Source of the DNA: Podaxis mareebaensis
Taxonomy: Eukaryota; Basidiomycota; Agaricomycetes; Agaricales; Agaricaceae
Assembly (NCBI GenBank): GCA_018524725.1
Contig: JAEUWP010000288.1
Span: forward strand, 1 to 64,000
Length of the DNA stretch: 64,000 nt
Direction: 5' to 3'
The notes beneath the pieces are model-generated. The model was not told the DNA's origin and ran no database searches. It saw only the letters and a program-made list of their open reading frames with translations. Shown one piece after another: positions 28,409 to 36,107 of this stretch. Position numbers and translations under genes: made by a program. Numbering within the stretch: position 1 is the first letter of the stretch; every line of letters starts with the position of its first letter.

Positions 28409-30274
28409 CTAGGGTTCATACATGACCAGAAACGATGGCCGAATGGCATCGTTCGTGTACACCACGAGTTCATCGTAGTTCAACGTTCCACCTTTTTCGG
28501 CAAGCACCTGAACATATGGGTTGTAATAGTTGATTGTCAAATGAACTATCGGACTTACCGAGTCAAAGCCAGGAGGTGGCGCCGTCAGAGTCGTGAGGTC
28601 GTGTGTCAGTTTGTAGCCCTTTCCCACGACGACTTTGTTAAGTAAGATGGCCTTCAGATTTGACTTGCAGTCATTATGCGAATAGTCATTCGATCTATCA
28701 TCGGCGCAATGAGGGCCTGAAATGAATATGCCGTGATGTCACTCACTTGGAGGAGGTCGAAGATGTATAAATACCACGACCGAACCTGGTACAGAGGATC
28801 AACTTCGAATTTGCAGTTAGAAATCAAAATGTGTCACCTTCCCCAGCCAGTCTTCTTTCCGAAGAGATTAAGGTCATATGAAGTTCTAACAATGCAACAC
28901 AATGAACACGTCGGCGACGAGCAGAGCTGAGTGTGTCCCTTGTCTCCCAAGTGGCACTCCCGACGGGTACCATGCCAGCGACGGTTCTCGTTCCCGGGGG
29001 ACCTGCCCTGACTCACGAATTGGCCGCGGGCCTCCACGGATGTCCTTTTGTAATCGATAATTGGTCAGCAATTCGCGGAACTCGATTTCCGAGGAAACCC
29101 ACCGATAGGAGTTGTACGCAGCAAGGCACGATGCTGGTGAACAGATCTTATAGACCCGACGGACCGGGGGGCATTGAGTTGCATGCCGCCAGGATGTCTT
29201 GAACTGATCGGCCACTTTGGGTGCTAATTAATATCCGCCCCAGCGTTCGCATAATTAAGGGCGTACCGCTCTTGAATGTAACATGACCAGCAGGAACCTC
29301 GAGGATAACTGGGCCCATCTTCTCCACTTTATCAATACACGCTTGACTGCAGAAATGGGACATCGTCATCTTTGGCGCTTGAAGACACATGAGACAAAGG
29401 GTCTCTCCCAAACTAGTGAACGTATATGTTATGTGATGAAATACATAACACCCTGAGGCGACTTACGTCTTGTGAGCCATGGAACAATATTCTCCGAGCG
29501 AACCATTGGCACTGGTGTAAACAGGGTTTTGACAATTGGGAGCCTGGCACGTTCCTGCGGCTGAAAATCAATCAGTCGGTGGTACTTTGGTTCCTGCAAA
29601 CGTCAGCCACCTTTGGATGGCTGGCTGCCTCCGCTCATAGTCTGTCTCCTCGCGATCCCATTGGTTAGCCCGTTCGCGTTCTTCGCACAGGCTTTACTAC
29701 AGAATGGATGTGTCTTGGTGCCATCAAAATATTTCGGCCGGATAAGGCAAAACTGGGTATCACAATACTGAGTTACTGAAGACGCAAATAATGAGGAATG
29801 GCTCACATCGCAGTTGGCACCTGGCACTGTTAACTGCGGAGGCTGGCTGCCCATTGCCGGCGTCCAGTTCTTCAACTTGTCCTTGCTCGCACAGGTTTTA
29901 CCACAATAAGGATGGACCTTAGTACCGTCAGAGTATTTGGGTCGGAGGTGACAAAACTAGACACATCTCAGTCAGTTAAGCGTTGAGCAGAACGGGGAAC
30001 CACGTACGTCGCATAGAGGATTTCCATAGTTGCTGGGGGGACTTGTGGAGAGGCCATTGTTGGAATGTGAAGGGAGAGAACTGGGAACGTTCACGGGGGC
30101 CGGTGGTGCGGGAGCGCTCGGGCCATTCTGCATTGGCGCCGCAGGCACTGCCTGTGGGGCTGCTTGGGGCAGAGGTTGCGAAGACTGGTTTCCGGCCAGC
30201 TTCGCTGCAATAGCGGGATATGCAGACGCGGCGGTGCCCAGAAGGGACAAAACCGTTGGAATATGCGCTGCCAT
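28409..30274 (-). CDS. PARP-like ADP-ribosyltransferase with four Cys-rich fingers
   Basis: Ten exons: 30274-30008, 29956-29807, 29752-29611, 29560-29467, 29412-29267, 29214-29103, 29044-28838, 28785-28747, 28694-28559, 28507-28409; 463 residues. An Ala/Pro-rich N-terminus leads to four modules between about 88 and 246 with C-x2-C or C-x4-C, then an aromatic-Cys-x3-Cys/His end, for example FCHLRPKYSDGTKVHPYC. The catalytic domain spans about 267-463 with the full H-Y-E triad: RRWHGTRREC (His328), RFGRGIYTSS (Tyr379), LNYDELVVY (Glu444). A Cys-rich insert (CSSPTCSLCC) follows the His motif. I infer transfer of ADP-ribose from NAD+; target and chain length are unknown. The fingers probably bind zinc. 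The gene is divergent from the neighbouring PARP-like gene across 283 bp. Confidence 0.85.
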
Positions 30275-30557
30275 TCTAGACGAAGACGGTCGTATGCGCT
30301 CAGCTTAGCTCACCAGGAGCGAGAATGTTTGATGATCTTGACGGAACTGCCAGTATCTGAAGTAAGTTGTTTATAAACGAGTGGCACGTCACATCGATGA
30401 AACCATGCATGAAACGCAATCAGCCACTCGCAAGGGCAGCAGGAACAACGAGGCCGGAGCGTGCCAAGCATGAGGCCGACGACGGAATTGATCAGGAATT
30501 TGTCTCCTCAACGCGCCTTTAAACCGAGCTCCCATCTTCCAATCACCCTTGCAAATT
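30275..30557. promoter_or_regulatory. Shared divergent promoter of two PARP-like genes
   Basis: Only 283 bp separate the ATG codons of the minus-strand (30274) and plus-strand (30558) PARP-like genes, so both are probably driven from here and may be co-regulated. No named binding site was identified. Confidence 0.6.
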
Positions 30558-31832
30558 ATGGTCTCTTTCGTTCAGAGCGTTGTTCATTGGGGTGCGAACC
30601 GTGCACAGGGTACTCCTCCAAAAGACCTCTGTGAGGTTAGTTCAATCTGTGTTTTCGATCTGGCGAACAAAAGAAACATGCTTATAAATTAATTTAGATT
30701 TGTGGTGTAAAGCCAAAGTTTGTCGAGAAAGGATTCAAGCACCCATATTGTAGCAGGACTTGTGCGAGGAGTAGTGGACAGGGTGCTAGCCCAACGGCAT
30801 GTCTGCTTTCCGGATGCCGCACGACAGGGAAGCCAGCCTTCTCCAATTTCTGTTCGGAGGAGCACGCCGTGCAAGTCTCCAGTTTTCTATCCTGATCTTC
30901 TTATTTCAAGTATTAATGCCGAGATGATTGGATACAGGGCAGGCGTTCGTCAAGGTCTGGTGGCTGGTTGTACCCGCTGCGGCGTGCAGCCTCGTAGTGT
31001 CGGTGAAATGTGCGTTGCTTGTGATCGACGGGCTCGTGTAGGACCACGGCTGCGGGAATTAAACGCAGACAGCTCAACATTTAAGAACCGTGAGTTGCGA
31101 GCGATTATCGGATCTTCGTCAGACCCTAACGATAGACTTTGGCGTCCACAGTGCGAGCTCAATTCCTGAGCGAATGGGAAGGAACCAACGAACATTTACC
31201 CGCATTCGAGAAAGCCTACGAAGTTATCCTAACCCGTGACGTTCGAGTGCGCCACGATGCATATCGGTGTGTTTTTCATCAAGGAGAACAACACGTCCTA
31301 GCGTTTTAAAACCACGTGCATTTCGTTCGCTAGCGCTAGGGTTCCAGGATCAGAAGAGATCCGAACATTCTACAGTTCCCTGTGCGTCTGCGACCTCGGA
31401 TACAAGGAAAGCAGCCCTTGCAATGGCCCGACATGTGGAATTTGCTGCGCTGTGAAGTCCGCCTTTAAGTCATTCGCCTTTGGAGAGACTGCGATGGGAG
31501 GAAGGTGCATTAATTTCGTTAGCTCGAGGGGAGGCTTGGCTGATCGATTGACAACCCCAGGTTCGGACCGGGAATCTATTCATACCGTAACCCTGCTCGT
31601 GCTGACAGGTTCTCGACCTCTTGCACAACTTCTCCCTATCGTGTGATGATTGCTTGCGATGCAATCGTTCAGCCTGGGCAGGTATCAGAGGATGACAATG
31701 GGGTGAGTATTCCTGGTTCACTGTGTAACATCGTGTGTACCCACTAATCACCGCTAGGTTGAAGAAGAGTCCATCTTTATCCCTGTAGCGGATGGAATTC
31801 TTCCAGCTTATGTCATCATGTATACCGTCTGA
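30558..31832 (+). CDS. PARP-like protein with altered active site
   Basis: Seven exons, 30558-30635, 30698-30874, 30924-31089, 31152-31266, 31340-31504, 31561-31702 and 31758-31832; 305 residues. The N-terminus has fingers ICGVKPKFVEKGFKHPYC and ACLLSGCRTTGKPAFSNFC, then GCTRCGVQPRS. The C-terminal half follows the PARP-like fold: CVCDLGYKESSPC, TCGICCAVKSAFKSFAFG, RFGPGIYSYRNPARADRF and VEEESIFIPVADGILPAY. The Tyr (240) and Glu (about 285) of the triad are present, but the His-Gly-Thr motif is replaced by Tyr-Ser-Ser around residue 190. It is therefore probably not a standard ADP-ribosyltransferase; it may be inactive or a regulator. The exon 2 to 3 acceptor (GAG) was chosen because it alone keeps the frame. 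Confidence 0.75.
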
Positions 31833-34762: not shown

Positions 34763-35026
34763 GGGGATTGATATCGTTACTCGCGCCTCATGGTTATCGT
34801 CAGTGTGTGCATGCCGGTTGATCCAGTATTTGTACTCCAACACGTGTTTGTTGTATTTCCTTCTTCGCGTCCGTCCTGTGTGTGACCATACATGATACAC
34901 AACGTGCTTGCTGATGAAACGCATCCTCGCGGTTGCTGTATGTCGTTAGGGGCCAATAATATAAGTACGGCCGCCTGGACGAATACCACTCTCATAAGTT
35001 ACTCAGTCAGCCCTACCGATTCAATC

Positions 35027-36107
35027 ATGTCCGCTGCCCGCGCCCAAGCCCCTCAGGCTGCCCAGCTTTGCGATGTAATTGCCCCCATTATTCGCTATCC
35101 CGCTACCGCCACAACTGAAACGATTCTTTCTTACAGCATTGCCATCAGAAGCCCAAGTTCGGAAACCATCAATACTGCTCGAAGACGTGTGCTACTCAAG
35201 CTGCAGCTCTTTGTAATGTCAGTATATGGTGGTAATATCGCCGCCGCCATCCCCTGATGCATTTCTCGCCAATAGCATTGCCACAAGAAGCCGAAGTTCC
35301 AGAACTTCGATTATTGCGGCAAGCACTGCGCGTCCCTTGCCAATGCAAATGGGACTAAACCCCGCGGTGCTACTGCGAATAACACCACAAAGAAGGGCAC
35401 CAACTCCAACAATAATCAACAACCTGCTGCGGGCGGCGCCACAATTGATCCCATGCAAATCGCCCGTACGTGTCGGTCCTATCCTGGGCAATCTTATCTT
35501 GCATCTATTCATCACACCCTCAAACAGAACTTGTCGTTCAACACGTCCCTCAGCTCCAGTCGCTGCTGGCTAGTGCCCAGGGCCAAGGGTCCAACTCCGC
35601 AGTGTCTGCCAATACTCAATCGGGAGTAGCACAACCTCCCACCAATAACCCTTTCCTCAACGCCACCACTGCGGCAGTCCAAGCCACTCAGAGCACCACC
35701 AACGGTAGTCGTTCGATACTTTCCTTCTCCCGCGGAAAGAAGAACACTCAACCCCCGTTGAATGTTAGCACCAAACAGACTACCGATGATCTTAGGTGCA
35801 TTATCCCTGGCTGCAAGCAGCCTGTCTATGTTGACGAAGAAGGAATAATCAGCGATTATTGCTCGCTAAGGCATCGCGAGTAAGTTCTTGTTCGTTTCAT
35901 TGGATCGACGGGGTACGGAAGCTTATTATGTATATTTTTAGGGAAGCTGTGACTTCCGGTTTAATCTCGCCTTGTATCATGTGTTTAGTCCTCCCGCAGA
36001 GTGATTCGGACTATTTTTGCTCGAAGGCTTGCCGTGAGGAGTCCATGAACAAGCGATACGACGACGAAGATGATGAGGAATGGAGTCCTGTTGAAAGCCA
36101 GAAATGA
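35027..36107 (+). CDS. Four-finger protein related to the PARP N-terminus, without a catalytic domain
   Basis: Five exons, 35027-35074, 35137-35217, 35276-35465, 35528-35879 and 35942-36107; 278 residues. It has four Cys-rich modules: LCDHCHQKPKFGNHQYCSKT, LCNHCHKKPKFQNFDYCGKH, CIIPGCKQPVYVDEEG...DYC and PCIMCLVLPQSDSDYFCSKAC. Their order and spacing match the four modules of the large PARP-like protein, and the introns before the first two fall at the same codon. Between modules 2 and 3 lies a Gln/Asn/Ser/Thr-rich linker. It ends with an acidic tail (DDEDDEEW) where the transferase would begin. I infer a recognition or adaptor protein, possibly competing with the PARP-like proteins for targets. 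Confidence 0.8.

What the first reader, a model, noticed from the sequence alone, without database searches (positions are those of the whole stretch)
28409..36107. PARP-like / NADAR / finger-protein gene cluster: a candidate ADP-ribosylation writer-eraser system
Five neighbouring genes all relate to ADP-ribose or share modules. Three encode PARP-like transferases (two with an intact H-Y-E triad), one a NADAR-domain protein, and one a finger protein matching the N-terminus of the largest PARP-like protein. Known: PARP-type enzymes add ADP-ribose from NAD+; NADAR proteins remove certain ADP-ribose adducts, and in bacteria NADAR genes pair with DarT toxins. Inferred: the fungal cluster may be a self-contained conflict or defence unit in which NADAR limits the action of the transferases. 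I know of no description of such a cluster in mushrooms.
Basis: partly seen in the sequence, partly recalled or inferred. Interest (0 to 1): 0.9.

Follow-up and report, generated by a model that had tools for sequence, protein, structure and literature searches.

The report
Mushroom PARP and NADAR gene block
Mushrooms carry a small, old block of genes for enzymes that attach ADP-ribose (PARP type) beside one that may remove it (NADAR type); the block is real and conserved, but an unrelated household gene next door is kept in place almost as faithfully, so it is not yet shown that the genes work together.

Summary
Window 28409-36107 carries five spliceable genes: a four-finger PARP (g1), a degenerate finger PARP-like protein (g2), a finger-less PARP (g3), a NADAR protein (g4) and a finger-only protein (g5). 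g1, g2, g3 and g5 are homologous. In six-frame searches of the 37-Mb genome these families appeared only here, and NADAR at three places. But a control neighbour, COQ4, is also linked (to g4 in 24 of 34, to g1 in 26 of 36; Fisher p about 0.08). So linkage is old and not clearly above local background. PARP and NADAR domains are as conserved as COQ4 (median 76, 74, 77% identity), which speaks against an arms-race unit, though the fingers diverge faster. g4 is YbiA-type, not the DarT1-linked type, and also passes the riboflavin N-glycosidase model. Best reading: an old, constrained mushroom ADP-ribosyltransferase family beside a NADAR hydrolase, with writer-eraser coupling plausible (nearest precedent: bacterial YarT-YbiA) but unproven.

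The parts
28409..30274 (-). g1: four zinc-finger-like modules plus PARP catalytic domain, 466 aa, 10 exons; H331-Y382-E447
   Evidence: spliced model; Pfam PARP 3.8e-13; triad conserved in homologues; fold of orthologue P0001
30275..30557 (.). 283-bp head-to-head intergenic region between g1 and g2
   Evidence: coordinates; shared promoter is inference
30558..31832 (+). g2: finger protein with degenerate PARP-like domain, 299 aa, 7 exons; H and G of the HG pair replaced; Cys knuckle kept
   Evidence: spliced model; homology to g1; alignment; Pfam PARP E 0.16
31929..33052 (-). g3: PARP catalytic domain without fingers, 275 aa, 6 exons; FHGT / GIYTT / NYEE triad
   Evidence: spliced model; Pfam PARP 7e-12; triad; start codon not proven
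33053..33740 (.). 688-bp head-to-head intergenic region between g3 (PARP) and g4 (NADAR)
   Evidence: coordinates; shared promoter is inference
33741..34762 (+). g4: NADAR (YbiA-type) protein with N-terminal extension, 283 aa, 4 exons
   Evidence: spliced model; Pfam NADAR 3.3e-38; TIGR02464 113 bits; catalytic residues; model of orthologue P0122
35027..36107 (+). g5: finger-only protein with the same four finger types in the same order as g1, no PARP domain found, 278 aa, 5 exons
   Evidence: spliced model; homology to g1; finger motifs; g4-g5 adjacency in another organism's protein P0182
38240..39264 (+). COQ4 (ubiquinone biosynthesis), unrelated neighbour used as linkage control; model by eye
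   Evidence: reading frames; homologue search; Pfam Coq4 on orthologue P0241

Best explanation
This is an old, strongly constrained ADP-ribosyltransferase locus of mushroom-forming fungi. One finger-PARP gene was probably duplicated in place (no tree was made): g1 kept fingers and catalysis, g3 lacks the fingers, g2 lacks the catalytic histidine, g5 lacks the PARP domain. Likely mechanism: g1 and g3 are ARTD-type transferases that take NAD+ and place ADP-ribose on a target (perhaps single units, as there is no PARP regulatory domain; a weak inference, since tankyrases lack it too and make chains, recalled); the four fingers of g1 choose the target; g2 and g5, which keep fingers but not the triad, bind the same target or partner and tune access; g4 is a glycohydrolase that removes an N-glycosidically linked ADP-ribose, most likely from a nucleobase, and so limits the modification. 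Shown by sequence and model: the families, the triads, the NADAR residues, homology within the cluster, and conserved linkage. Inferred: activity, target, and above all that g4 acts on the product of g1 or g3.
Against: COQ4, unrelated, is linked to g4 in 24 of 34 and to g1 in 26 of 36 species; the difference from 39 of 44 is not significant (Fisher p 0.08 and 0.085; overlapping species), so inherited gene order may explain the whole. In Psilocybe cyanescens NADAR stays 3 tags from COQ4 but lies 20 from the PARP fusion; in Amanita inopinata PARP and NADAR are 18 apart. g4 also passes TIGR02464, riboflavin intermediate N-glycosidase. In vitro activity did not mean rescue in cells: E. coli YbiA failed against both DarT1 and YarT (PMC11125620 section 6). 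The residue aligned to R93, one of the pyrophosphate contacts, is N in g4. In the P0001 model the stretches with Y375 and E440 have pLDDT under 50, so the active-site geometry is not tested. No expression or biochemical data; the target is unknown.
Confidence: 0.42

Rival explanations
1. Inherited neighbours: the PARP family does its own protein signalling, g4 is a YbiA-like metabolite-repair enzyme of riboflavin synthesis, and both merely stayed beside each other and COQ4 in a slowly rearranging block.
For: COQ4 linked almost as often; order in Amanita phalloides is PARP 007645, NADAR 007648, COQ4 007651, which fits the gene counts of the window; g4 over the TIGR02464 cut-off, 113 against 73.7 bits.
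Against: Another NADAR in the genome fits the riboflavin model better; outside Agaricales PARP-NADAR linkage held in 5 of 5 species while PARP-COQ4 was broken in 2 of 2 (Fisher p 0.048; tiny numbers, different species, and COQ4 lies farther from g1 than g4 does); Mycena kentingensis has PARP and NADAR on one contig and COQ4 on another.
Confidence: 0.38
2. One reading: g1/g3 are toxic effectors of a defence or self-incompatibility response and g4 is the built-in antitoxin, a eukaryotic analogue of DarT1-NADAR or YarT-YbiA.
For: Same kinds of parts as YarT-YbiA (H-Y-E transferase beside YbiA-type NADAR; PMC11125620 section 6); fingers and g4 N-terminus diverge faster (medians 53 and 50%); a NACHT-WD40 gene lies 21 kb away, though nothing connects it.
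Against: Catalytic domains as conserved as COQ4 (medians 76, 74 and 77% in 18 of the 25 species with all three); g1 relatives listed from 88 named species (absences not counted); no PADLOC match at E up to 0.01 for P0001 or g2, a weak one for P0122 (28.9 bits; g3 and g5 not scanned); g4 not of the DarT1-linked type.
Confidence: 0.12
3. The cluster is a gene-modelling or assembly artefact, or chance.
For: Gene models were made by eye without transcripts; g3 start and g2 GC-AG intron are not proven.
Against: Relatives of g1 and g4 annotated as near neighbours in independent assemblies; g3-g1 and g4-g5 adjacency seen in other proteins P0004, P0007 and P0182.
Confidence: 0.02

Closest known systems
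YarT-YbiA toxin-antitoxin pair of myxobacteria (PMC11125620)
   Same: A transferase with an H-Y-E motif encoded beside a NADAR of the YbiA subfamily (glutamate type).
   Different: YarT is a small bare bacterial toxin of the HYD1 subclade; here the transferases are PARP-type, one with four fingers, with two relatives that lack the triad, in a block also holding COQ4. Toxicity and rescue were not tested.
DarT1-NADAR (DarTG1; PMC11543638)
   Same: ADP-ribosyltransferase next to a NADAR.
   Different: No DarT domain found in g1-g3 or in the genome; g4 has the YbiA-type glutamate, not the aspartate of the BC4488 subfamily.
E. coli YbiA / riboflavin intermediate N-glycosidase (TIGR02464; PDB 2b3w)
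   Same: g4 core: 38% identity in the Foldseek match of its orthologue, over the TIGR02464 cut-off.
   Different: g4 and its relatives carry an N-terminal extension with a predicted hairpin and a low-confidence linker; neighbours are PARPs.
Fungal PARP clades 1 and 6A (PMC2964712, PMC4245714; passages read)
   Same: PARP catalytic domain with H-Y-E.
   Different: No WGR, PARP regulatory or UBCc domain found; four small fingers and a Cys knuckle inside the catalytic domain instead.
Human PARP10/14/15/12 and tankyrase catalytic domains
   Same: Closest solved folds to the P0001 model.
   Different: About 20% identity; different accessory domains (recalled); the Cys knuckle directly after the HG motif.

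Membership tests
ARTD / PARP catalytic family | PARP fold with H-Y-E triad | tested here: met
   g1 and g3: Pfam over cut-off, triad; fold of the g1 orthologue, with low confidence around Y375 and E440. g2 fails: H to Y, G to S.
PARP clade 1 (PARP1 type) | WGR and PARP regulatory domains before the catalytic domain | tested here: not met
   Pfam scan at E up to 1: only PARP in g3; in g1 PARP plus two sub-cut-off hits, zf-CGNR and DUF7576.
PARP clade 6A (fungal PARP with UBCc) | C-terminal UBCc domain | tested here: not met
   No UBCc by Pfam; g1 ends with the PARP domain. No tree was made.
NADAR superfamily | NADAR domain with catalytic E, K and third acidic residue | tested here: met
   Pfam 131.9 bits against 35.1; residues in g4 and in 48 of 48 aligned relatives.
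NADAR, YbiA subfamily | Glutamate at the last-strand catalytic position | tested here: met
   LVE in g4, E in 48 of 48; definition from PMC11543638. The numbering shift of 2 between paper and chain is my inference.
DarTG1 antitoxin NADAR (BC4488 subfamily) | Aspartate at that position and a DarT neighbour | tested here: not met
   Glutamate instead; no DarT match in the genome (control rang in 1 of 14) or in g1-g3.
YarT-YbiA type pair | Neighbouring H-Y-E transferase and YbiA-type NADAR | tested here: met
   g3 and g4 adjacent, head to head.
YarT-YbiA type pair | Transferase toxic, NADAR rescues | not testable with these tools
   Needs a bench test.
YarT-YbiA type pair | Transferase is a YarT/HYD1-type ART | not tested
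   YarT sequence not fetched; g1 and g3 match PARP.
Conflict / defence module | Rapid divergence of the effector and antitoxin domains | tested here: not met
   Catalytic domains as conserved as COQ4 in 18 of 25 species; fingers and g4 N-terminus are faster.
Conflict / defence module | Patchy occurrence | tested here: inconclusive
   g1 relatives in 88 named species, but lists are capped at 120 rows and absences cannot be counted.
Riboflavin intermediate N-glycosidase | TIGR02464 over its cut-off | tested here: met
   g4 113.1 bits against 73.7; C52 NADAR 151.9 bits. A model used for bacteria and archaea.

The most novel reading that the evidence does not exclude
Mushrooms have kept, since before several of their orders split, a eukaryotic writer-eraser pair for nucleobase ADP-ribosylation: a finger-guided PARP that modifies DNA or RNA and a YbiA-type NADAR that removes the mark, with two triad-less relatives as regulators. 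It would be the first such genetically linked PARP-NADAR pair in a eukaryote known to me.
Probability: 0.25. Interest if true: 0.88.

Novelty: new variant of a known kind. Interest (0 to 1): 0.55.

Why it matters
NADARs occur across eukaryotes, but to my knowledge the transferase whose product they reverse is not known there. A conserved block with a constrained PARP family and a NADAR, in species with genetics such as Coprinopsis cinerea (PARP CC1G_11638; its NADAR was not among the 120 rows and must first be located), makes that question directly testable. It also adds a finger-PARP architecture that two surveys of eukaryotic PARPs, in the passages I read, do not list for fungi.

Tried and rejected
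Relatives outside fungi: profile A1 found no relative in viral contigs (61 pattern matches, none confirmed) or genome contigs (45, none). Class 1 PARP in the own genome: WGR 0 (control rang in 2 of 14), PARP_reg 0 (but this control rang nowhere, so uninformative); the PF00644 control also rang in 0 of 14. Other erasers: one macrodomain (C279) and one ADP-ribosylglycohydrolase (C35), both unlinked. I rejected 'linkage shows partnership' after the COQ4 control. I rejected 'DarT-type system' on the subfamily residue and absent DarT. I considered g2 as an active PARP and rejected it on the triad. Finger type: no Pfam family over cut-off; the fold of the fingers was not searched apart. Orthologues of g2, g3 and g5 could not be searched for (the 3 protein searches went to g1, g4 and the control).

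Papers: searches for NADAR+PARP+fungi (25 of 35 listed), ADP-ribosyltransferase+Agaricomycetes (3 of 3), PARP+basidiomycete+ADP-ribosylation (7 of 7), evolutionary history+PARP+eukaryotes+fungi+clade (10 of 33), PARP+mushroom+synteny+zinc finger+ADP-ribosyl (none), DUF1768+Basidiomycota (none), NADAR+riboflavin+N-glycosidase (6 of 6), Agaricomycetes+NADAR (6 of 12), Coprinopsis cinerea+PARP+ADP-ribose (4 of 4) listed nothing on such a cluster, judged from titles and abstract starts of the listed rows; only open-licence PMC papers are held. PMC9503650 (passages) gave background on viral NADARs and nothing on mushrooms in the passages shown.
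Full report
What is there. The window is part of a 153-kb contig of a 36.95-Mb fungal genome in 429 contigs. The closest homologues of g1 are from Leucocoprinus birnbaumii (78%) and Leucoagaricus (81% over 81% of the query), so this is probably a mushroom of the Agaricaceae (inference). I built gene models by splicing. All five genes read through: g1 (-) 28409-30274, 466 aa; g2 (+) 30558-31832, 299 aa; g3 (-) 31929-33052, 275 aa; g4 (+) 33741-34762, 283 aa; g5 (+) 35027-36107, 278 aa. 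g1/g2 and g3/g4 are head to head with 283 and 688 bp between, g2/g3 tail to tail with 96 bp, g4/g5 in tandem with 264 bp.

Families. Pfam gives PARP for g1 (3.8e-13) and g3 (7e-12), NADAR for g4 (3.3e-38), a sub-threshold PARP for g2 (0.16) and nothing for g5. By BLAST g1 and g3 share 46% over 200 residues of the catalytic domain, g2 matches g1 over its length (9e-26) and g5 matches the fingers of g1 (7e-14). g1 and g5 have the same four finger types in the same order: three of the form CxxC...CxxxC and one CxxxxC...CxxxH in third place; 91 of the 115 g1 homologues under 600 aa show the same three-plus-one set. So the cluster is one family, probably duplicated in tandem, plus NADAR.

Which NADAR. 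In PMC11543638 (passages and section 12 read) YbiA-type NADARs have a glutamate where DarT1-linked ones have an aspartate. g4 has the glutamate, as do 48 of 48 aligned relatives (48 of 120 listed, a few of them half-length paralogues). The residues equivalent to E43 and K50 are kept in 48 of 48, D130, W133 and W89 in 47, R79 in 44; the place of R93 is N in g4 by the pairwise alignment. PMC11125620 (abstract, passages and section 6 read) reports guanosine de-ADP-ribosylation in vitro by the NADAR/YbiA proteins tested and a bacterial H-Y-E transferase, YarT, neutralised by a YbiA-type partner; it also reports that E. coli YbiA rescued neither DarT1 nor YarT toxicity in cells. YarT-YbiA is the nearest precedent. 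Against a dedicated role, g4 passes the NCBI riboflavin N-glycosidase model (113 bits, cut-off 73.7); but a second NADAR on C52 scores higher (152 bits). The third, on C204, has lost the catalytic glutamates by eye (TAMHL, LVY).

Is the co-location special in this genome? g1, g2, g3 and g5 as queries found no convincing second locus (one match at E 0.94). NADAR occurs at three places. One macrodomain and one ADP-ribosylglycohydrolase lie elsewhere; WGR and DarT gave nothing. These are six-frame searches of intron-rich DNA in which only the best candidates are scored, so absences are soft.

Is it conserved? The g1 search returned 328 proteins and the g4 search 805, of which 120 each are listed. 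Equal contig lengths and running locus tags show which pairs lie together. From I used 102 of 120 rows (88 species): 14 rows without organism, 2 without contig and 2 whose g1 and g4 come from different assemblies (Agaricus bisporus, Ephemerocybe angulata) were left out. Rows were treated likewise (also without Amanita muscaria, and without P0125, which has no source); 70 species remained, and only the 45 species that also occur in another list were typed. PARP and NADAR share a contig in 39 of 44 species; in 8 the shared contig is at most 200 kb. Of the five misses, Mycena capillaripes and M. epipterygia have only a half-length NADAR match listed, Macrolepiota and Leucoagaricus are on short contigs, and Lentinula raphanica may mix assemblies. 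Tag gaps between PARP and NADAR: Leucocoprinus birnbaumii 1, Stygiomarasmius scandens 2, Marasmius oreades 3, Tetrapyrgos nigripes 3, Amanita phalloides 3, A. inopinata 18, Psilocybe cyanescens 20; JGI-style numbers, which need not follow position, were not counted. Outside Agaricales 5 of 5 species share a contig: Jaapia, Rickenella and Irpex (orders looked up), Panus and Abortiporus (order recalled, as for the Agaricales themselves).

The control. COQ4 lies as far from g4 (3.5 kb) as g1 does. It shares a contig with g4 in 24 of 34 and with g1 in 26 of 36 species; among 25 species with all three, all are together in 19, PARP with NADAR alone in 3, PARP with COQ4 alone in 1, none in 2. NADAR-COQ4 tag gaps are 2, 3, 3 and 10. 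The excess of PARP-NADAR linkage is not significant (p 0.08; the samples overlap, so this is a rough test). Several separations involve short contigs. Outside Agaricales PARP-COQ4 is broken in 2 of 2 (Plicaturopsis, Taiwanofungus) and NADAR-COQ4 kept in 1 of 1 (Athelia): a hint, on tiny numbers, that the PARP-NADAR link outlasts the PARP-COQ4 one. Fair conclusion: the link is real and old, and is part of a generally conserved stretch.

Tempo. In 18 of the 25 species (chosen by me; the 7 left out include the broken or split cases) the median identity to the window's protein is 76% for the PARP domain, 74% for the NADAR domain, 77% for COQ4, 53% for the fingers and 50% for the g4 N-terminus. The enzymes evolve like a housekeeping gene, the fingers faster. 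This is what one expects of conserved enzymes with lineage-tuned targeting, rather than of a diversifying toxin-antitoxin module; fast fingers alone would also fit a changing target.

Adjacency of the rest. P0004 (Gymnopilus dilepis) and P0007 (Psilocybe cyanescens) are annotated g3+g1 fusions, and P0182 (unnamed source) runs from NADAR into a stretch starting MSAP with g5-like fingers. These look like merged gene models and show that g3-g1 and g4-g5 adjacency exists elsewhere; in the two fusions no g2-like part lies between. In Amanita phalloides the numbers of genes between PARP, NADAR and COQ4 equal those in the window if one unassigned gene (36737-37801) lies between g5 and COQ4; that the intervening genes are g2, g3 and g5 is inference.

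What is known. PMC2964712 and PMC4245714 (passages) place fungal PARPs in clades 1 and 6, with WGR or UBCc domains. g1 and g3 have neither. No passage that I saw names a four-finger fungal PARP, but those surveys date from 2010 and 2014 and I read passages only. The literature searches named in Tried and rejected listed no report of the cluster.

Verdict. Observation confirmed; enzyme functions likely from sequence; pairing plausible, not shown; defence role unlikely on present evidence.

Noticed in passing
window 57179-61104 (-): A NACHT-like open frame (Pfam NPHP3_N 8e-23, NACHT below cut-off) followed by a frame with 12 counted WD40 stretches: looks like a STAND/NLR-type gene.
   Followed up: partly
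G000:C204:22993-23504 (L013, L017): A NADAR paralogue that appears to have lost the catalytic glutamates (TAMHL and LVY in place of TSEH and LVE; by eye).
   Followed up: partly
window 30871-30937: g2 needs a GC-AG intron (GCAAGT donor) to read through.
   Followed up: no
P0021, P0079 (Thelephora terrestris), P0115 (Daedalea quercina): Proteins with two finger-PARP units in tandem: the family duplicates locally in other lineages too.
   Followed up: partly
window 17915-22700: Tyrosinase-like open frames in more than one copy (by eye).
   Followed up: no
window 36737-37801 (-): Open frames between g5 and COQ4; the main one (37148-37801) has no Pfam match, and the gene count in Amanita phalloides suggests that one gene here is kept.
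   Followed up: partly
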